In this document: positions 1 to 14,575 of the stretch, one piece after another
Layout: every line of letters starts with the position of its first letter
Position numbering within the stretch: position 1 is the first letter of the stretch
The notes under the pieces: model-generated
Told to the model about the DNA's origin: nothing
The model's database searches: none
The model's input: the letters and a program-made list of their open reading frames with translations, nothing else
Made by a program: the position numbers and the translations under genes
DNA from: Candidatus Gastranaerophilales bacterium
GTDB taxonomy: Bacteria; Cyanobacteriota; Vampirovibrionia; Gastranaerophilales; Gastranaerophilaceae
DNA: 64,000 bases
Reading direction: 5' to 3'
Assembly (NCBI GenBank): GCA_944325865.1
Contig: CALVBS010000003.1
Location: 75,223 to 139,222 of the forward strand

Positions 1-804
1 AATATTTATTACCCGCAGTCTTTTAGTGACTCTATGTACAGGATGAGTTTGGTAAATTCTGAGATTCCAAAGCTAAGAGATGTTGAAGAAATCAGGCAGA
101 GCAGAAAACCTGAACCGGATCCGATTTTTGCTAAAGATATAGAAAAGTATGAAGAAGAATCCGGACTTCTGGATAATATAGTACCTTATACACTGAATCT
201 TCAAAAAAAATATTCTGCTCCATGTCCTTTAGGAAGCTTTATGGCGGATTGTATGCAGCATACTGCAAATGCTGATGCTGCATTTATTTCAACAGGTTTT
301 TTAATGAAACCGATGTATTACAAACCTCATACTTATATTACAAACTATTTGTTCAGGAAAACCATGATAGCGGATACCCCGGTAAAAACGGTTAATCTTT
401 CTGCAGAAGAACTCAAATCAGTATTTGATAATGCTTTACGAACACATGGCTACGGTTATAGTAATCCTCGATTTTTGCAGTGTTCAAATAATATCAAAAT
501 TATCGGCAGAAATAATCTTTCTGCAGGACAATTTCAAGTAAGACAAATATATATTAACGGCACTCCTATTCTTGATAATCACGGCATCCCGATAAAATCT
601 TCCAGACGGTATAAATGCGTAATTGATTCTTTTATTGCTGATGGCGGTCAGGGATTTGAAACTCTAAAAAATGCCAGTAAGTCAGATGTTATAATTAACG
701 GAAGACCGATAAAAATTAATGAAATTCTTATGAACGGCTTAAAAGATGCATACGGCAAATATCCGCAAGGGTCGGAATATCCGTCATTTGAACTTATTGA
801 TTAA
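1..804 (+). CDS. 5'-nucleotidase/UshA-family C-terminal domain, partial at 5' end
   Basis: The reading frame is open from base 1, so the gene starts upstream of the window; the first internal ATG is at 34. What is visible is the C-terminal substrate-binding domain of the UshA/CpdB-type 5'-nucleotidase family: a PLGSFMADCM segment, then ADAAFISTGF, and near the end a YKCVIDSFIADGGQGF segment, which matches the family's conserved FxAxGGDGF region. The metal-binding N-terminal phosphoesterase domain must lie outside the window, so the enzyme may be complete. Family members are usually exported and hydrolyse nucleotides in the periplasm. The stop overlaps the stop of the convergent glycosyltransferase gene. 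The family call is fairly secure; the exact substrate is not. Confidence 0.75.
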   Translation, partial: NIYYPQSFSDSMYRMSLVNSEIPKLRDVEEIRQSRKPEPDPIFAKDIEKYEEESGLLDNIVPYTLNLQKKYSAPCPLGSFMADCMQHTANADAAFISTGFLMKPMYYKPHTYITNYLFRKTMIADTPVKTVNLSAEELKSVFDNALRTHGYGYSNPRFLQCSNNIKIIGRNNLSAGQFQVRQIYINGTPILDNHGIPIKSSRRYKCVIDSFIADGGQGFETLKNASKSDVIINGRPIKINEILMNGLKDAYGKYPQGSEYPSFELID

Positions 805-5886: not shown

Positions 5887-5991
5887 TAGCTGATTATTTT
5901 TATATTGTTATATAATTTATATTTAGGATTGAAATTCTCTGTCAAATGGGTTATAATGGGTTATATAGGCATAATTGAGGAGATTCTTGTA

Positions 5992-7245
5992 ATGTTATTT
6001 AACGGAAGTTTTAAAGGATTTAAAAGTGCAATGTCAATGGCGGAAATTTTAATAGCACTGGCCATTATTGGTATAATAGCAGTAATGACTCTTCCGGCAT
6101 TAAAAAATGCACTACCGGATAAAGAAGAAACAATACATCAAAAGATGTCATATATTGTTGAACAAGTTGTTGCTCAGATTTATGATGACGATGTTATGTA
6201 TGCTAAAAAAAGCGATTTGTTTTCTCAAGGATTCCAAAACACGGAAAGAGCTACCGTTAATGGTATAGATTATGAAGGCGATACTAAATTTTGTGAACTT
6301 TTCGCAAGTAAATTTAATAGAATGCCAGGTGAGGTCGTTTGCGAAGAAGACAAAAAGTCATTTACGTCAACAGATAATGTTGATTGGTTTTTACCTGTGA
6401 CAGATTTTAAAGAAGGAAGTGCTGAAATAATGATTGACGTAAACGGTTCTCAAGGTGAGAATTGTCTAAAGGGCAGTGCCGGTTGTAAAAATCCCGACAG
6501 ATTTAAATATTACGTTAAACCAAACGGTACAGTTACTTTAGAGCAGCCTTCTGACGTATTGAATGATAAATTTATGATTACTGTTCATGTTACAAATCCT
6601 GAAGGTGGTGAATACAAAATTGCAAGGTTAAATGACAATGGTACTACCGGGCCATTTAACAGTGGTGCACAGTACTTTAAAGATTTGGACAGAAATACGA
6701 GATGGATTATTCAAGCTTACCCTAATACGGGGTATTATACAGATTGGCAGCTTAATAAAATGAGAGTTAATATTATTAGCTCGGATGTTGAAGTTAAGCT
6801 TGTTTTCCATGAAAGATCAACCTATTGTGTTATCCTGAATGTAGCCAACTGTGATGCGGCTAATCTGAATACTTGTGCTAATTATAAGGTTAAAACTGGC
6901 TGTCAATATGTTGATGTCGGTAGCGGAAACGGACATTATGCTCTTAATGAGGACGGAACCTTCCAATACGTAGGTCTGGAAATGTCTGAAGGTAAGTATG
7001 AATACAAATGTACGGGAACTGAAAAAGCAATGACTGCCGGCAAACCTATTATAAATGATGATGGCACGGTGACTGCTGATCCAAATTACAGTTCATTATT
7101 TACCTGTGGTTTGATGACCGGTGATTACCAGATTAATGTAACTCCAAAAGCCGGCTATACAATTTCTCCGGAGGGTACATATACTCAGGATGTGCGTCTT
7201 GGTACTGATAATCTTACCTTCGGGGTTACACTGAGACAAAATTAA
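5992..7245 (+). CDS. Prepilin-like protein with Ig-like C-terminal region
   Basis: The 417-aa product has a type III (prepilin) signal: a short basic leader, then A|MSMAEILIALAIIGIIAVMT, with the conserved Glu at mature position 5 and Ala instead of Gly before the cleavage site. Start 5992 has GAGGAG 9 bases upstream; an upstream start at 5905 would bury the leader. The next ~150 residues resemble the 7384-7992 protein (EGDTKFCELFASK, FLPVTDF, IDVNG, NC, CKNPDRF). The remainder looks like repeated beta-sandwich modules with Cys pairs. It is probably a minor pilin or pseudopilin of a type IV pilus or type II secretion machine. A terminator follows, so it is transcribed alone. Confidence 0.8.
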   Translation: MLFNGSFKGFKSAMSMAEILIALAIIGIIAVMTLPALKNALPDKEETIHQKMSYIVEQVVAQIYDDDVMYAKKSDLFSQGFQNTERATVNGIDYEGDTKFCELFASKFNRMPGEVVCEEDKKSFTSTDNVDWFLPVTDFKEGSAEIMIDVNGSQGENCLKGSAGCKNPDRFKYYVKPNGTVTLEQPSDVLNDKFMITVHVTNPEGGEYKIARLNDNGTTGPFNSGAQYFKDLDRNTRWIIQAYPNTGYYTDWQLNKMRVNIISSDVEVKLVFHERSTYCVILNVANCDAANLNTCANYKVKTGCQYVDVGSGNGHYALNEDGTFQYVGLEMSEGKYEYKCTGTEKAMTAGKPIINDDGTVTADPNYSSLFTCGLMTGDYQINVTPKAGYTISPEGTYTQDVRLGTDNLTFGVTLRQN

Positions 7246-7383: not shown

Positions 7384-7992
7384 TTATCTCATAGAGCTAT
7401 TAGATTTCAGATATTCTTTTTCTTTTTCTCCTTCAACGAGCATTTTGCCGTCAGGTTCAACTTTTATTTCGAATATATCAGGATCTTTACAATTATTTGA
7501 GTCAAATTCACAATTTGGCTCTTTATCAGTATTTACGTCAACATATATAGTTTCGGTATCTGTAAAATCACTGATAGGCATATACCAGGCGACACCATCT
7601 GTGGTTATGAAAGACGGTGTTGTGTAGGTTCCGTTTCCAACAGGGGTTGAATTAACAGTTTCACATTTTATTTCGTCATCATCTGTGGTGTTAACTTTTC
7701 TGGCAAATAAGCCGCAAAATTTATCCTGTCCTTCATAAGTATGTCCGAGATAACTGGCCAGAACTGTATTTGTAAAACCTACAGTTTCACCCTGAGTCGG
7801 ATAGAAGTCTTCATCATTTACCAGTTCAAAAATCATACGTTCAGCAACATAGTATGCTTTTCTGAACATAACTTTATTTTTATTAGGTCGAACATTTGCA
7901 ATAGCAGGTAGTAATAGAGCTGCTAAGATTCCGAACACCGCCAGAGTTACCATAACTTCAGCCAGTGTGAATGCATTTTTATTTTTTAACAT
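7384..7992 (-). CDS. Prepilin-like protein
   Basis: The 202-aa protein begins with MLKNKNA|FTLAEVMVTLAVFGILAALLLPAI, a classical prepilin leader except for Ala at -1. The body is homologous to the first 190 residues of the 5992 product: KFCGLFARK, a WYMPISDF segment, YVDVN, a PNCEF...CKDPD Cys pair, and a VEPDG segment. The pair therefore comes from a duplication, with the plus-strand copy carrying an extra C-terminal extension. Cleavage by a PilD-type peptidase would be needed; no pilD, pilT or pilB is in this window. It is expected to be inserted in the inner membrane before assembly. Confidence 0.8.
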   Translation of the reverse strand: MLKNKNAFTLAEVMVTLAVFGILAALLLPAIANVRPNKNKVMFRKAYYVAERMIFELVNDEDFYPTQGETVGFTNTVLASYLGHTYEGQDKFCGLFARKVNTTDDDEIKCETVNSTPVGNGTYTTPSFITTDGVAWYMPISDFTDTETIYVDVNTDKEPNCEFDSNNCKDPDIFEIKVEPDGKMLVEGEKEKEYLKSNSSMR

Positions 7993-8139: not shown

Positions 8140-9042
8140 ATGAGAATAAAAAAAGCATTTACGTTGGCTGAAGCTTTACTGGTATTTATCATAATCGGTA
8201 TAATTGCGGCAATAGGTATGAGTACGGTAAAGCCGTGGCAAAAATCATATAAATACTCATATTCCAGGATGTATAATGCGTTATCACTTGCAATTTACAA
8301 TCATATGATTAATTCAACAGAGGAAAATTCTTTCCCGGAAACTGCGGATGATTTTTGTAAGGCCCTACTTGAATGGATAAACACTGCGGATAATGCTACA
8401 ACCTGCCGAGGTTCTAATGTCGGTTTAAATCCGACATCATTCCCGGAAGAGAGGGTAAGAATGATGGCTTCAAACGGTACAAAAATCTGGATAGGTTCAA
8501 ATACCGATGAGACGCCGTTTATACTTAGCCAGAACATTGATGCATCTACCACAGATACTGTCAGATATTATATGGTATTTGTGGATATTAACGGAGACAG
8601 AGGGCCGAATACTGCTGAATGGAAACCAACACAAATGGCTGATATTGTTGCCTTTGCCGTAACTGATAAGTTTAAAGTAATTCCTCTTGGTTATCCGGAG
8701 GTTGACGGCAGATATCTGACGGCTCATGTAGTTTATCCTGTACTTGAGACTACTTATACGGATAATACAGGTACGGATTCATATACCGGTGACGAAGAGA
8801 TTGTTTCCGATCCTATGTCTTATTACGAAGCTAAAATTAATGCATATGGTAATGCTATAGTTGCAGGTAATATTGATACATATAATTTTAGGGATGTATT
8901 TCCTTATGGAAGTAATTTTAGAGTAGATAATTATAATGACTATTACGAAACTCCGCCTACATTTGATAATGTCTCTTGTGCCTTTGATGGAACAACTAAT
9001 CCTGAGCCGGTGTGCAGTGTAAAAATTTATGATTACCACTAA
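8140..9042 (+). CDS. Prepilin-like protein, 300 aa
   Basis: The leader MRIKKA|FTLAEALLVFIIIGIIAAIG has the basic pre-piece, Ala at -1, Glu at +5 and a hydrophobic N-terminal helix. GGGGG at 8131-8135 lies just upstream of the ATG and acts as the ribosome site. The body contains an MASNGTKIWIG segment and VDINGDRGPN, the Asp/Asn-rich turn common in bacterial pseudopilins. The start is divergent from the 7992 gene with about 150 bases between. It is likely a minor pilin or pseudopilin; its partners are the neighbouring genes. Confidence 0.78.
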   Translation: MRIKKAFTLAEALLVFIIIGIIAAIGMSTVKPWQKSYKYSYSRMYNALSLAIYNHMINSTEENSFPETADDFCKALLEWINTADNATTCRGSNVGLNPTSFPEERVRMMASNGTKIWIGSNTDETPFILSQNIDASTTDTVRYYMVFVDINGDRGPNTAEWKPTQMADIVAFAVTDKFKVIPLGYPEVDGRYLTAHVVYPVLETTYTDNTGTDSYTGDEEIVSDPMSYYEAKINAYGNAIVAGNIDTYNFRDVFPYGSNFRVDNYNDYYETPPTFDNVSCAFDGTTNPEPVCSVKIYDYH

Positions 9043-9205: not shown

Positions 9206-9248
9206 ATATGGCTAACTTCTTCAAGCAAAAGAAGAACTTGTGTCATAG

Positions 9249-9284
9249 TAAAAAAGACCTCCTATAAAGGAGGCCTTTTTATAT
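9249..9284 (-). terminator. Terminator of the minus-strand pseudopilin operon
   Basis: Read on the minus strand, AAGGCCTCC pairs with GGAGGTCTT and is followed by TTTTT. It lies 15 bases beyond the stop of the last gene of the operon (9298). Confidence 0.75.
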
Positions 9285-9297
9285 TTTAGGTGATTTA

Positions 9298-11949
9298 TTA
9301 CCACTTGATTAGCAATGCACCATCAGCACCCGGACCGGCCGGAACGTTATCCCAGTCATCACGACAATCTTCCGGTACATAGCGGTGTTCTGCAATAGCC
9401 TGTGTTGCCCCTGCAGCAGCAGCAGCTTCTTTGCTAGGGAATACACTGGTATCAAGCATTATTGACTGTTCAAATTCAACTTCAAACCTTCCTGCCCAGC
9501 ATCTATGTTCAACACCGCCGCCAGCACCGCCTCTGCCGTATTTGATAAATTTCTGGATAGCTTCAGAGTTGTCTGCAGTATTGAATATAAATGTCATAAT
9601 ACTTGAAGCAAATCCAACCGGTGTCGGGTATTCACCGAATGTACGGCCTGATACGATGTGGAACTTATAATCGCTGCCGCTTCCAAATACATTACATTCA
9701 GCAGGTCTGTCAGCTCCGCTTTTGCCGTAGCATCTTTCTTCCAAATCATATATTTCCTTGTCAAATTTAGGAAGTACAGAGCCGGTCTTGCTTATACCGC
9801 CTCTGCCGCCTTCACCGCCTTCAGCGTATATAATATTACCCATAGATGTAGCTGAACCTTTTGCACCATCCTGACCAAGGTTGAATGCTGCAGCAGAACC
9901 GCCTCTGCCGACTTTGATAGTGGTATCAACATCTTTTAATGAACGGACAATAACAGTCTTAAATTGACCAGGGGAACCGGCTTCACCATAGTTCAGGTAG
10001 TTATTGTCATATGAATAATCATATGAGTAATTACCATTTGGGGTTACAGTACCGTAAACGTGTTTTAGACAGTATCCGTAAGCACCGGTGCCGCAGACAC
10101 CAAGACCGGCATCACCCTCACATGTACCTGCAACTGCACTATTTTGATCTGCAGGTATTCCTTGATCGACACATTCACCTTCAGTATTAGGTGTACATGT
10201 TCTGCATGCTGCATCGCCGCCTTTAGAGGCACTATAGGCTTTTGCTGTTGATACGTCAGCACCATCTTTGTTTATGGTAAAGAATGATGAAGTAGGTCCA
10301 TTTGCTGAACCCGGAGCTCCACATTGATGAGCCATTCCGCCTTCACATGGGGCAAACCCTGCCTGAGCACAGGAACTGTCTCCAAAATATCCGCCTGTAA
10401 CAGTTGAACCTGTATCTACATCAGAACCATCCGTTCCGGTGGTTGCTGTAGAACCGGAACTATAGCCAAGATTAAAGTTACCTGCAACTGCCGGACCCGT
10501 ACAGCTTGCACCTGAAGCTCCAGGTGCTCCTGATACTGTTGATACACGATACTCATAAGTTTGTTCACTCCAAACATTACAGTTACTTGTTGTTTCAAGA
10601 TAATCTTCCCAATTTGTACACATCTCAACGCCATCACCCGTAACTGTTTCACATTCTGTTTCGCAGGTACAGTTGTTGTCAACTGTGGTATTTCTGTCTT
10701 CCGTAGGTGTACACTCTAAAACAGTATCATAGGTTGAACAATCGTATGCCTTATCCGGTCGTGGTGTCGTTGTCCATCCGCGACATTCACCTCTTTGACA
10801 TACTTCCTCTTCACCTATCTTTACCTGTTCACATTCCGGCGGACCTGTTATTGTTTCTTCTATAGTGCAAGAGCCGGTTGTTCTGCATCCATTGGATTGG
10901 TCACCTGTAATAGATGTAAGACTGCAATATGAAGAACCTCTGCAGGTAATCTGGAATCCCGGTTTTGTGATTGTCTCCGTTTTCGTTGTACAATCTTCTT
11001 CATATATAGGTTCCATATGGCAATTTTGTTCATAGCCGCCTGTGCATTCTACTAAAGGAGATTGCGGTTCATAGCAGGTTTTATAATCTCCAACCAGTAC
11101 TTTATGTGAGTCACAATCTTCACCGCGGGTAATTACTGTTATTGAACAAAGTTCACCGCCTGCAGCACCTGTTATCTTTCCTTTATTAAGAGGACCTTTG
11201 TTAAACGGTTTTAGAGCAAGTGTATCTTTGAAAATATTTGTGATTTTAGATGCTATTTTTACGAATGGATTATGACCGGTTGTCTCCCCGCCTTCACCTT
11301 CAGTTTCGCCTTCGCCTTCAGCGGGAGCTTCTTCTTTACAATAACATCTTTCTTCTTCAGAGCCATCTGTCGAAGTGTACCAGTTTGTACATCTGACTTT
11401 AGCTACTTTTTCATATTCAATACAGGTCAGAGGAAGTGCATTTTTGGTTGCGATACCGATATCACCTCCGGCACCTGAACCGCTGCTTTTTGCATAACCC
11501 CACAATTCCCCTGCATTGGCAAGGAAACCTTCTTTTGAAATATTAAGAGGTTCTAAGGCTTCTTCTGTTATACCCCATGGGGAAAGATCTCTTGCCCCGC
11601 TCCATCCGCCAATAGGATTACCTCCTGTGTAGCCGGCATCACCACCGCCGCCACCGCCGCCGATTGCGGATATCTGGAAGTATGCGGCCTTTTGAGGCGG
11701 TGAAAATACACACTGGTCTGTCGGTCTGTCGTAAACAACATTTTGTTGATTCTTTCCGGACCATTTTGCTTCGTATAGTTCACCGTTCTTGTAGTAACAC
11801 ATATAAGCACCGTGAACTACCACTGATGGTAATCTGAAATGCTTTTTGGTTACAACAGGAACAAGTGCTGCTATTATCAGTGATGAAACCAATAGCAGCA
11901 TCATTAATTCTACTAATGAAAACGCTCTTTTTTTGTGTTTAAATGCCAT
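9298..11949 (-). CDS. Cys- and Gly-rich giant pseudopilin (glycine-rich-domain fusion)
   Basis: The 883-aa protein has a prepilin leader MAFKHKKRA|FSLVELMMLLLVSSLIIAALVPVV. After it come a CYYKNGELYE segment, a CVFSPPQ motif, then ISAIGGGGGGGDAG at about 110-125, the entry to a glycine-rich domain. A middle block (about 270-500) is unusually rich in Cys, with many C-x(5-15)-C spacings. Later GRGG, DGAKGS and EGGEGGRGG stretches complete the glycine-rich fold. The chain ends DGALLIKW. The same order (prepilin, CYY, C-x-F-x-PP, GGGG, terminal W) is in both upstream genes. It is the last of three co-directional genes, 17 bases after the previous stop. Its role is inferred as a secreted filament or tip component. 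Confidence 0.75.
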   Translation of the reverse strand: MAFKHKKRAFSLVELMMLLLVSSLIIAALVPVVTKKHFRLPSVVVHGAYMCYYKNGELYEAKWSGKNQQNVVYDRPTDQCVFSPPQKAAYFQISAIGGGGGGGDAGYTGGNPIGGWSGARDLSPWGITEEALEPLNISKEGFLANAGELWGYAKSSGSGAGGDIGIATKNALPLTCIEYEKVAKVRCTNWYTSTDGSEEERCYCKEEAPAEGEGETEGEGGETTGHNPFVKIASKITNIFKDTLALKPFNKGPLNKGKITGAAGGELCSITVITRGEDCDSHKVLVGDYKTCYEPQSPLVECTGGYEQNCHMEPIYEEDCTTKTETITKPGFQITCRGSSYCSLTSITGDQSNGCRTTGSCTIEETITGPPECEQVKIGEEEVCQRGECRGWTTTPRPDKAYDCSTYDTVLECTPTEDRNTTVDNNCTCETECETVTGDGVEMCTNWEDYLETTSNCNVWSEQTYEYRVSTVSGAPGASGASCTGPAVAGNFNLGYSSGSTATTGTDGSDVDTGSTVTGGYFGDSSCAQAGFAPCEGGMAHQCGAPGSANGPTSSFFTINKDGADVSTAKAYSASKGGDAACRTCTPNTEGECVDQGIPADQNSAVAGTCEGDAGLGVCGTGAYGYCLKHVYGTVTPNGNYSYDYSYDNNYLNYGEAGSPGQFKTVIVRSLKDVDTTIKVGRGGSAAAFNLGQDGAKGSATSMGNIIYAEGGEGGRGGISKTGSVLPKFDKEIYDLEERCYGKSGADRPAECNVFGSGSDYKFHIVSGRTFGEYPTPVGFASSIMTFIFNTADNSEAIQKFIKYGRGGAGGGVEHRCWAGRFEVEFEQSIMLDTSVFPSKEAAAAAGATQAIAEHRYVPEDCRDDWDNVPAGPGADGALLIKW

Positions 11950-11966
11950 ATCTTAATCCTTTCAAA

Positions 11967-13010
11967 TTACCATAAGAATAGTACACCGCCATCATAGCCG
12001 GCGGCATTTTTTGCTCCGCCTGTTCCAACTTTTGCATCTTTCATTTTTGATGAGTATTGCATACTTTCGATATATCTTGCGAGATTTGACGGTGTTTCTC
12101 CGTCACCTTCTGCATTTGTATCCATTACAAGCTCCATTGTATAAAGTGAAGGTGTCCATAAATCATCAACTTTCGGCTCCCAATCAAATTGATAAACGGG
12201 GTTGGTTTCTTCACTGTAGTCGCTCCATAAGCTTATATCATGATATATCCAGACACTGTTGTCATCTGGCTTTTGTTCTGTATATACATCATTTACAATA
12301 AATCGAGGGTTATCAAGTATTAAATTCCCATCATCATCAAAATCTTTGTATGTTAACTGGGATGTTTTATAAAATTCTCTTGTACGACAGAAGCTTACTT
12401 GTATTTTACCGTCTTTTATTTCACAAGTCGGATAAATATTACAGTTATATTCATCACCTTCAGCGTATTCCGTAATTACACAGGTCAATATATCATTGAC
12501 GGTCGTATTTTCTAATGTTGCAAGAGCTTTTCCTCCGTTTGCAGTCATTAGTTCAACTCCGTTACCCATTACGACAGTATCACCGCCATGATTGTTTGCA
12601 AGGCCGCCTCTACCAGGTGTTGCCGTATATTTTGCGTGGACAGAAGCAAAGAATGTACTTGCAAATTGGCCTTCACTACCTCCGCCTGCAGGGCCGCCAC
12701 CGGCACCGCCTCCAACAGCATCAATAATCATGTATTTAGCATAATAAGGTGGTACAAACGAACAAGATGTCGATGTTCCGCCGGCATCAGCCGCTTTTTG
12801 TCTGCCCGTAGTACTTCCTTCCGTAAACATTTGCTGATACAAAGTACCGCCTTCATAGTAGCATTCAAATCTACCGTGAGCTTCAGATGCTACTTTTGAT
12901 TTAGCTTTGTGTGGAATAACATTTGCCATTACCGCAACAAAAATCGCAACAATAATCATTACGACGCAGGCTTCCATCAATGAAAATCCATTTTTAAAAT
13001 TTTTATCCAT
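11967..13010 (-). CDS. Glycine-rich-domain pseudopilin, 347 aa
   Basis: I choose the ATG at 13010, giving MDKNFKNG|FSLMEACVVMIIVAIFVAVMA, a canonical prepilin leader with Gly at -1. The longer frame to 13109 overlaps the upstream gene and would put a 33-residue basic stretch before the leader. Downstream are ECYYEGGTLYQ, CSFVPPYYAKYMIIDAVGGGAGGG and PGRGG...GGDTVV...ANGGKA, all shared with its two neighbours, and the chain ends DGGVLFLW. It starts 5 bases after the upstream stop, so translational coupling is likely. It is the shortest and simplest of the three and may show the minimal architecture of the family. Confidence 0.75.
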   Translation of the reverse strand: MDKNFKNGFSLMEACVVMIIVAIFVAVMANVIPHKAKSKVASEAHGRFECYYEGGTLYQQMFTEGSTTGRQKAADAGGTSTSCSFVPPYYAKYMIIDAVGGGAGGGPAGGGSEGQFASTFFASVHAKYTATPGRGGLANNHGGDTVVMGNGVELMTANGGKALATLENTTVNDILTCVITEYAEGDEYNCNIYPTCEIKDGKIQVSFCRTREFYKTSQLTYKDFDDDGNLILDNPRFIVNDVYTEQKPDDNSVWIYHDISLWSDYSEETNPVYQFDWEPKVDDLWTPSLYTMELVMDTNAEGDGETPSNLARYIESMQYSSKMKDAKVGTGGAKNAAGYDGGVLFLW

Positions 13011-13015
13011 AATTC

Positions 13016-14575
13016 TTACCATAAGATTACAACTGCTCCATCTCCGCCATCTTTTGCCTCGCATTTCATATTTCTGCCACTTCCGGTCGGCGTTTCTCCG
13101 TTTGCACATTTAAATGTTCCTGACGGGGTAGTACATTTGTGAACCTTTACATTTTGTAATTGTGTTTTACACCTAATTCTAAAAGTGTTCACATTAAATT
13201 CACAATTATAAAATTTTGTTGTAGGTGAATATGCTGTAGGGTTAGGTGTATCATCCGCAAATGTTGCTGTAGATGTACCATAATCATAATTAACTACAAA
13301 ATGTGAACAATTTGAAGGATCAGGACAGCTTGTATCAAGGGTGCTGGTGTTTGTACCTATTGTACAATCAAATTTGATAGCTGTTTGTGGTGTACAATAT
13401 CCTTCTCGTTCGATTACAACGCTTGACTCTGTCGCATCAGTACAATTTGATGTGTATCCGTAATTTCTGTAGAAATTTAAACCTATGGAATCGGTAATAA
13501 CTTCCCATTTACTGCCAATTCTTCTTGCATTTACAATACTGTCATTGTTATCCCATTCATAGAAAATATATCCTGAAGTGTCATCAACGAATTGAGTTTC
13601 TCCGTTTCCGCCGGCACCTGCATCATACGAAATTTTAGTTTTCAAAGCATCAAATTTTTCTGCACTTTCGGTAATATCTGAAAATCCGGCGTCTTTACCT
13701 GTTATTGAGGCTAAACTGCTTAAACCAAAATCTCCGGGATTACTGCCAATCATCATTTCTGAAATTTTGCCGTCAATCCCCCCGTTACCGCCAACGCCGC
13801 CACGTGCAACAAGACCTTCAAACCGTTTTTCTGCTCCGCCTTCTTCACCGGGTTCGTAAACAAATTCTACAATGGTATCGCCGCCGTCTTCACCGCTGCC
13901 ATCGCCATTTGTTGTAGCTTTACCTCCTTTTCCAGGTGTGAGTTCAAGTTTTACGTTCCCAGGAAGCTGCGGCACAAACAATGAAACTACTTTTGCCGCA
14001 GTACCGCCAAGACGATATCTAACTGTTTGTTGGAATGATACTTTATTTACATCAAACGCACCGTCTCCGGTAGCACCTATTTTAATATTCCAAGGAATTT
14101 CCGAAGTCGGTTTGCTCATTACAAAATCTACCCAATCCGGAAACAGTCCCGGTGAAGATTTATAAAGATAACTTACTGCTGATACTTGTTCCACAGGATC
14201 AAGTTGTGCCTTGTCTGTCGTCAATTTGGCCCCCGCACCGCCGCCGCCTACTGCGTGTATCATAAAGTATATGGTGTTTTGCGGCGGAGAAAAGACGCAT
14301 TTCCCTTCATCTGCATATGCTGACTCGGAAGAAATCGCTCTGCCGTTTTCTTCCGCCATATAGGTCATCAGTTTTTTACTGCCGTCCTCCTGAGTTTCCC
14401 AGTAACATTCGTATCTGCCGTGGCTTTTTCTCATATCATCCAGCTTGAAAACCTTTTTGGTTGCCATAGGTAACGATAGGATTATCAACATAATTATCGC
14501 CATTACAATAAGCATTTCAGCCAATGTATATGCAGATTCTTTCCAGTTTTTACCAGTATCAGCCAATCTTCGCAT
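13016..14575 (-). CDS. Glycine-rich-domain pseudopilin, 519 aa
   Basis: First gene of the operon. The leader is WKESA|YTLAEMLIVMAIIMLIILSLPMATKK with Ala at -1 and Tyr at +1. Next come RYECYWE, KCVFSPPQNTIYFMIHAVGGGGAGA, then LTPGKGG...GEDGGDTIVEF and ARGGVGGNGG, and a Cys-bearing region (residues about 390-500). The chain ends DGAVVILW. The AGAGG ribosome site lies 9 bases before ATG 14575. The glycine-rich region resembles in plan the glycine-rich domain of ALK/LTK-type receptors and of bacterial glycine-rich-domain proteins; this is an analogy from motif spacing, not a search result. Confidence 0.75.
   Translation of the reverse strand: MRRLADTGKNWKESAYTLAEMLIVMAIIMLIILSLPMATKKVFKLDDMRKSHGRYECYWETQEDGSKKLMTYMAEENGRAISSESAYADEGKCVFSPPQNTIYFMIHAVGGGGAGAKLTTDKAQLDPVEQVSAVSYLYKSSPGLFPDWVDFVMSKPTSEIPWNIKIGATGDGAFDVNKVSFQQTVRYRLGGTAAKVVSLFVPQLPGNVKLELTPGKGGKATTNGDGSGEDGGDTIVEFVYEPGEEGGAEKRFEGLVARGGVGGNGGIDGKISEMMIGSNPGDFGLSSLASITGKDAGFSDITESAEKFDALKTKISYDAGAGGNGETQFVDDTSGYIFYEWDNNDSIVNARRIGSKWEVITDSIGLNFYRNYGYTSNCTDATESSVVIEREGYCTPQTAIKFDCTIGTNTSTLDTSCPDPSNCSHFVVNYDYGTSTATFADDTPNPTAYSPTTKFYNCEFNVNTFRIRCKTQLQNVKVHKCTTPSGTFKCANGETPTGSGRNMKCEAKDGGDGAVVILW

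What the first reader, a model, noticed from the sequence alone, without database searches (positions are those of the whole stretch)
9298..14575. Three-gene operon of pseudopilins fused to glycine-rich domains with terminal Trp
All three proteins have the same order: prepilin leader, CYY-type segment, C-x-F-x-PP, a [I/V]-x-A-[V/I]-GGGGxG entry, G/D-rich blocks and a C-terminal DG[A/G][L/V][L/V][I/F][L/K]W ending. The plan is like the glycine-rich domain known from ALK/LTK receptors and some phage and bacterial proteins, but here joined to a type IV pilus-type leader. This would be a new kind of secreted filament or tip.
Basis: partly seen in the sequence, partly recalled or inferred. Interest (0 to 1): 0.78.

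Follow-up and report, generated by a model that had tools for sequence, protein, structure and literature searches.

The report
Pilins carrying phage-fibre-like glycine-rich heads
A group of gut bacteria (non-photosynthetic relatives of cyanobacteria) carries a conserved set of three genes whose products look like the base of a type IV pilus fused to the glycine-rich tip of a virus tail fibre, so these cells may build pili whose tips grip other surfaces the way a virus grips its host.

Summary
The three adjacent minus-strand ORFs (519, 347, 883 aa) each have a prepilin leader with an invariant Glu+5, an HGxxxC hairpin, CxFxPP, a GGG entry and a terminal Trp. They are an old paralogous trio (G1-G2-G3), confined in our sample to one family of Gastranaerophilales: 62 of 386 Cyanobacteriota genomes are positive, 35 of them with exactly three hits. 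Of 126 homologues found without using the C-terminus (non-redundant loci, window excluded), 125 end in Trp. AlphaFold models of G1 and G2 (pLDDT 88 and 86) show a short transmembrane helix, a flexible linker, then the TNF-like plus glycine-rich (TG) fold of cyanophage Pam3 tail fibre (Z 12.4 and 11.8) and ALK/LTK (Z about 8-9); unrelated folds reach 3.4. Homologues of all three hit Pfam Gly_rich_2. The genome encodes a type IV pilus machine. Best reading: TG-headed modular minor pilins that present a receptor-binding, possibly heterotrimeric, tip on a type IV filament. Fold and conservation are shown by computation; tip location, trimerisation and adhesion are inferred. It is a new head on a known kind of part (modular pilins), not a new kind of filament.

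The parts
13016..14575 (-). G1: 519-aa prepilin with TG (TNF-like + glycine-rich) head; first gene of the trio
   Evidence: ORF; AF2 model pLDDT 88.1; VIA Z 12.4 to Pam3 fibre, about 8 to ALK/LTK; orthologues in A2/A4
14459..14530 (-). G1 residues 16-39: hydrophobic alpha1-N stick after the A15|Y16 prepilin cleavage site, Glu at +5 (E20)
   Evidence: sequence; helix 11-39 in model; E20 invariant in A2
13019..14428 (-). G1 residues 50-519: TG head including the terminal GAVVILW strand
   Evidence: aligned range 50..519 to 7ypx
11967..13010 (-). G2: 347-aa prepilin with TG head; second gene
   Evidence: ORF with ATG at 13010; AF2 pLDDT 85.8; Z 11.8 to Pam3 fibre; A1/A6
12918..12986 (-). G2 residues 9-31: alpha1-N stick after the G8|F9 prepilin cleavage site, Glu+5 (E13)
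   Evidence: helix 11-31; E13 invariant
11970..12881 (-). G2 residues 44-347: TG head ending GGVLFLW
   Evidence: aligned range 44..347 to 7ypx
9298..11949 (-). G3: 883-aa prepilin with glycine-rich head and a large Cys-rich insert; third gene
   Evidence: ORF; Gly_rich_2 in 18/27 homologues, best 2.5e-9; N-terminal paralogy to G1 and G2; not modelled
10069..11424 (-). G3 residues 176-627: Cys-rich, fast-changing middle, candidate distal receptor-binding part
   Evidence: identity to nearest orthologues falls to 6-48% here against 70-80% in the first 100 residues and in residues 651-700
9246..9280 (-). terminator-like hairpin (GGCCTCC-TTTATA-GGAGGTC then T-run) after G3
   Evidence: sequence; plus-strand half listed in the scan
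8140..9042 (+). PY: 300-aa prepilin of the same neighbourhood
   Evidence: PY-type pilin found near the trio in many relatives
7384..7992 (-). PX: 202-aa prepilin with an ordinary leader (N_methyl 29.4 bits)
   Evidence: PX-type pilin near the trio in many relatives
5905..7245 (+). 446-aa prepilin whose N-terminal half resembles PX, with an added C-terminal part
   Evidence: same place next to the trio in L031, L032, L084-L086

Best explanation
The three genes encode minor type IV pilins whose globular head is replaced by a TG module, the TNF-like beta-sandwich with a glycine-rich distal bundle found in phage tail-fibre tips and in ALK/LTK receptors. Proposed working: (1) the prepilin peptidase cuts the leader before the F/Y+1 residue (inferred from the motif and the peptidase gene); (2) the short hydrophobic helix with Glu+5 docks into a type IV filament built by the PilB/PilC/secretin machine (inferred); (3) a flexible linker lets three TG heads, one each from G1, G2 and G3, pack through their TNF-like platforms as a heterotrimer, most likely at the filament tip (inferred); (4) the variable glycine-rich and Cys-rich loops bind a receptor on gut mucus, a eukaryotic cell or another microbe, and PilT-type ATPases may retract the filament (inferred). 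The TG fold of G1 and G2, the conserved trio and the conserved terminal Trp strand are shown by computation.
For: Fold: the G1 and G2 models match 7ypx (Pam3 fibre) at Z 12.4 and 11.8, Bxb1 tail tip at Z 10.2 and 9.8, ALK/LTK at 7.4-8.9; unrelated folds are at or below 3.4. For G1, glycine-rich-domain phage and giant-virus proteins lead the viral-structure list. [quoted passage not shown] Number three: profile A1 gives exactly three hits in 35 of 62 positive genomes and six where two sets exist. G1, G2 and G3 form three separate groups, each spanning the genera. Where G3 is unlinked, the genome still has all three (G041 and G044). Natural dissection: in genus g14 the G2 gene has shrunk to 159-188 aa, losing every glycine-rich loop but keeping the stick, HGxxxC hairpin, CxFxP and Trp-ending strand, as expected if it is needed as a platform. 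Variability sits in the middle of G3 and the distal part of G1. Machine: secretin, PilB-like and PilC-like genes in one cluster, two PilT-sized ATPases, one prepilin peptidase. Neighbouring pilins PX and PY recur beside the trio.
Against: No protein has been seen in a filament. No complex was modelled, so the heterotrimer rests on the number three, the trimeric fold of the phage relative and the GRD-less G2. In known type IV pili the tip complex is capped by a subunit lacking Glu5 (PMC10191384), and all three proteins keep it. G3 was not modelled. The window's own three proteins score below the Pfam cut-offs for N_methyl and Gly_rich_2 when scanned alone. Some genomes have one, two or scattered single genes. 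No ligand is known. Not every genome of the order has the trio (42 of 146 by G1 similarity).
Confidence: 0.55

Rival explanations
1. They are modular minor pilins that each bind a ligand independently, along or at the tip of the filament, with no heterotrimer.
For: Known modular pilins such as PilB and PilC of S. sanguinis act as single grafted adhesins (PMC8179133). Some genomes carry scattered single genes: G075, G100, G107, G139.
Against: Exactly three members in most positive genomes and an ordered G1-G2-G3 operon. A GRD-less G2 is kept in g14, which makes little sense for an independent adhesin.
Confidence: 0.25
2. They are not assembled into filaments but stay in the inner membrane, held by the uncut or cut helix, as sensors with a periplasmic TG head (receptor-like, as ALK/LTK).
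For: The helix is short and no classical pilin alpha1-C or pilin beta-sheet is evident in the models. The TG fold occurs in receptors.
Against: Invariant Glu+5 and prepilin leader in all three alignments. Linked to further prepilins and present in a genome with a pilus machine. No cytoplasmic signalling domain is present; the leader is short.
Confidence: 0.12
3. They are pseudopilins of a type II secretion system whose TG heads select or push out an exoprotein.
For: The ATPase/platform/secretin set is shared between T2SS and type IV pili; only one secretin is present.
Against: PilT-sized second and third ATPases argue for retractable pili. The TG fold in phages is receptor-binding, not cargo-selecting. 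The T2SS core proteins GspL and GspM were not sought.
Confidence: 0.08

Closest known systems
Modular (bimodular) type IV pilins, e.g. PilB and PilC of Streptococcus sanguinis (PMC8179133)
   Same: Class III leader and hydrophobic stick carry a domain not specific to pilus biology, presumed to be displayed for binding.
   Different: The head is a TG module. In the G1 and G2 models it follows the short stick directly, with no pilin beta-sheet module seen in between. They come as a conserved trio.
Cyanophage Pam3 tail fibre gp24 (7ypx; PMC9608196)
   Same: Same TNF-like plus glycine-rich fold over residues 44/50 to the end (Z 11.8 and 12.4); conserved platform, variable tip.
   Different: Phage protein, homotrimer with an N-terminal helical stalk that docks to the baseplate and a dedicated chaperone. 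Here there is a prepilin stick and three different genes.
ALK/LTK receptor TG domain (7nx1, 7nx3, 7n00 and others)
   Same: Same fold, Z 7.4-8.9.
   Different: Eukaryotic receptor tyrosine kinases, no prepilin stick. The Pfam ALK_LTK_GRD model finds nothing in this genome.
Minor pilin tip complexes: PilHIJK/GspHIJK, and the CofB tip trimer (PMC10191384, PMC8179133)
   Same: Small sets of minor pilins that prime and cap the filament; CofB forms a trimeric tip with a beta-sandwich.
   Different: Heads unrelated in sequence; all three proteins here keep Glu5, whereas the known cap lacks it.
Pfam PF21722 Gly_rich_2
   Same: Matches many homologues of G1 and G3 and a few of G2.
   Different: The window's own proteins fall below the cut-off. 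Hits checked elsewhere in the phylum had no prepilin leader at the printed N-terminus.

Membership tests
Type IV pilins (class III signal peptide) | Leader ending G/A, hydrophobic +1, Glu at +5, about 20 hydrophobic residues | tested here: met
   Glu+5 invariant in alignments A1-A3; the G1 frame is over the N_methyl cut-off in the genome scan (24.7 bits), G2 and G3 just below at 20.7 and 20.2
Type IV pilins (class III signal peptide) | Long alpha1 (about 50 residues) packed on a pilin beta-sheet head | tested here: inconclusive
   Models show a helix of about 21-29 residues, a low-confidence linker and then the TG head; the helix ends may be mis-modelled; G3 not modelled
Type IV pilins (class III signal peptide) | Processed by prepilin peptidase and found in filaments | not testable with these tools
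   One Peptidase_A24 gene present; needs biochemistry
Modular pilins | Prepilin N-terminus joined to a domain not specific to pilus biology | tested here: met
   TG fold in G1 and G2; Gly_rich_2 in G3 homologues
TG (TNF-like + glycine-rich) fold | Structural match to solved TG domains well above unrelated folds | tested here: met
   Z 11.8 and 12.4 against 3.4 or less for unrelated rows, for G2 and G1; G3 not tested by structure
Pfam Gly_rich_2 (PF21722) | Score over the curated cut-off | tested here: not met
   Not met by the window proteins. Homologues match with best E-values of 1.2e-5, 4.6e-6 and 2.5e-9 and several relatives exceed the cut-off
Pfam ALK_LTK_GRD (PF12810) | Profile match | tested here: not met
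   No match at E up to 10 in the own genome
Core minor pilin tip complex (HIJK type) | One subunit lacks Glu5 and caps the filament | tested here: not met
   Glu5 kept in G1, G2 and G3; PX and PY also show it; other pilins of the genome were not examined
Phage tail fibres | Trimer of the TNF-like platform | not testable with these tools
   No multimer prediction available; indirect support only

The most novel reading that the evidence does not exclude
Three different prepilins jointly form a heterotrimeric tail-fibre-like TG tip on a type IV filament, so a bacterial lineage has put a virus-type receptor-binding tip on its own retractable pili. One subunit may act in some genera as a bare platform without glycine-rich loops.
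Probability: 0.35. Interest if true: 0.82.

Novelty: new variant of a known kind. Interest (0 to 1): 0.66.

Why it matters
How gut Gastranaerophilales attach, and to what, is as far as I know open; these bacteria are common in animal guts and hardly cultured. The trio gives a concrete, testable adhesin candidate. It also adds bacterial pili to the places where the TG fold is used for recognition, beside phage fibres and ALK/LTK receptors, and it adds to modular pilins a case in which three paralogues have stayed together across genera.

Tried and rejected
Low-complexity or chance glycine runs: rejected, since structure, paralogy and conservation agree. Phage or prophage genes: a viral-contig scan with the G2 alignment found no relative, and the loci are flanked by housekeeping genes such as PEPCK here (recognised from the sequence) and UvrA or peptidase U32 in relatives. 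Outer-membrane beta-barrel C-terminal signal as the reason for the Trp: not tested directly; disfavoured because the Trp ends the last strand of the TG head. Sequence search of solved structures with the A1 and A3 profiles gave only weak hits, geopilin N-terminus and ribosomal protein L2. Foldseek alone on G2 gave nothing at E<=0.001, although ALK chains led the list; the second-look aligner resolved it. Literature: no paper held both 'glycine-rich domain' and 'prepilin'. Heterotrimer precedents in mycobacteriophage baseplates were read, but their relation to the TG fold was not established. One search was a stray call with a placeholder accession and returned nothing.
Full report
What is there. 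Three minus-strand ORFs lie head to tail: G1 13016-14575 (519 aa), G2 11967-13010 (347 aa, with the ATG at 13010 rather than the longer mechanical start) and G3 9298-11949 (883 aa). The gaps are 5 and 17 nt, and a terminator-like hairpin follows G3, so co-transcription is likely but not shown. Each has a prepilin leader (A15|Y16, G8|F9, A9|F10), Glu at +5, an HGxxxC segment, CxFxPP, a GGG entry and a last strand ending in Trp. Of 61 stop-to-stop frames of 120 aa or more in the window, only these three end in Trp.

Where it lives. The closest relative outside the window's own genome is Candidatus Scatousia excrementipullorum, with other Gastranaerophilales MAGs next. The genome has 2.03 Mb and 77 N_methyl matches at E<=1, most over the cut-off. 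G1 homologues occur in 42 of 146 genomes of the order. Profile A1 finds 62 of 386 genomes of the phylum, all in the same family, and 35 of the 62 have exactly three hits (my count from the table). The scan scored only a handful of candidates per genome, so counts above about five may be low; a count of three is not an effect of that limit.

An old trio. Profile-profile comparison makes the three paralogues. In a tree of the N-terminal region (94 columns, quick method), G1 (29 rows), G2 (29) and G3 (31) are each one side of a branch, with SH-aLRT 15, 92 and 99. The G1 group is therefore the weak one; a phylogeny on more columns is needed. The gene order G1-G2-G3, with G2 the smallest and G3 usually the largest, is kept from genus to genus. 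In G041 and G044 G3 lies elsewhere on the genome, but all three genes are present. Pilins of types PX and PY recur beside the trio; the labels PX and P446 overlap because those proteins share their N-terminal half.

The terminal Trp. ORFs collected only by similarity to the first 125-130 residues end in Trp within the last three residues in 224 of 225 cases, or 125 of 126 among the genome-search loci (window excluded). The one exception has its Trp four residues from the end. The 225 include repeated records of the same genomes.

Fold. AlphaFold2 with alignments of 34 and 35 sequences gives G2 at pLDDT 85.8, pTM 0.70 and G1 at 88.1, pTM 0.75. Both have a short helix, a low-confidence linker and then a beta-rich head. 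Against solved structures, G2 residues 44-347 match cyanophage Pam3 fibre (Z 11.8, rmsd 2.5, 124 aligned), Bxb1 tail tip (9.8) and ALK/LTK (7.9-8.9), with the next unrelated row at 3.4. G1 residues 50-519 match Pam3 fibre (Z 12.4, rmsd 2.8, 156 aligned), Bxb1 (10.2) and ALK/LTK (7.4-8.2), with the next row at 3.3. Foldseek against viral models lists glycine-rich-domain proteins for G1. By sequence, Gly_rich_2 matches 18/27 G3, 11/26 G1 and 3/27 G2 homologues. A shared fold does not prove a shared function.

How it may work. In Pam3 gp24 three identical TG heads make a trimeric tip; the glycine-rich stem is conserved and the distal residues are hypervariable and proposed to bind the host (PMC9608196). 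The trio here has the same pattern. Identity to the nearest orthologues (L031, L032) is 70-80% in the first 100 residues of G3 and in residues 651-700, but 6-48% in most of the stretch between. In genus g14 G2 has lost every glycine-rich loop and keeps the stick, hairpin, CxFxP and last strand, as expected of a platform that must still assemble. I therefore propose a heterotrimeric tip; this is inference. An alternative is three independent adhesins.

Machine. The genome has a secretin, PilB- and PilC-like proteins in the same cluster, further T2SSE-family ATPases of 358 and 365 aa that fit PilT in size and a Peptidase_A24. Retraction is thus possible. PilM, PilN, PilO and PilY1 were not sought. 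Published accounts report partial or fuller pilus gene sets in this order (PMC5877343) and type IV pilus genes in Vampirovibrio (PMC4451040).

Comparison. Modular pilins are widespread, with 264 architectures reported (PMC8179133). I could not read that paper's data set to see whether a glycine-rich head is among them, so priority is not claimed. The Cyanobacteriota hits of PF21722 outside this family that were looked at did not show a prepilin leader at the printed N-terminus. Phyla beyond Cyanobacteriota were scanned only with the G2 peptide pattern through genome contigs, which is a narrow test.

Limits. The sequences are from MAGs, and no transcription, processing or binding data exist. 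E-values from small candidate databases are for the genome or candidate set, not for all proteins.

Noticed in passing
G000, whole genome: 77 frames with a prepilin N-terminal motif at E<=1 in a 2.03 Mb genome, 72 of them over the Pfam cut-off: an unusually large stock of prepilin-like genes.
   Followed up: no
window 5905-7245 (+): 446-aa prepilin whose N-terminal half resembles the 202-aa PX pilin and carries an extra C-terminal part; it sits next to the trio in several relatives.
   Followed up: partly
G318 and G320 (genus g18), e.g. L162: 34-36 first-look candidates for Gly_rich_2 per genome and runs of adjacent prepilin/glycine-rich genes, suggesting a large expansion in that genus.
   Followed up: partly
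G391:C1:876659-917869 (minus strand): An open frame reported as 20,437 aa with at least seven Gly_rich_2 domains in another Cyanobacteriota genome.
   Followed up: no
L061 5525-6091, L066 4933-5448, L071 7792-8340, L080 1386-1865 and 5618-6112: Short G2 proteins (159-188 aa) without glycine-rich loops but with the Trp-ending strand.
   Followed up: yes
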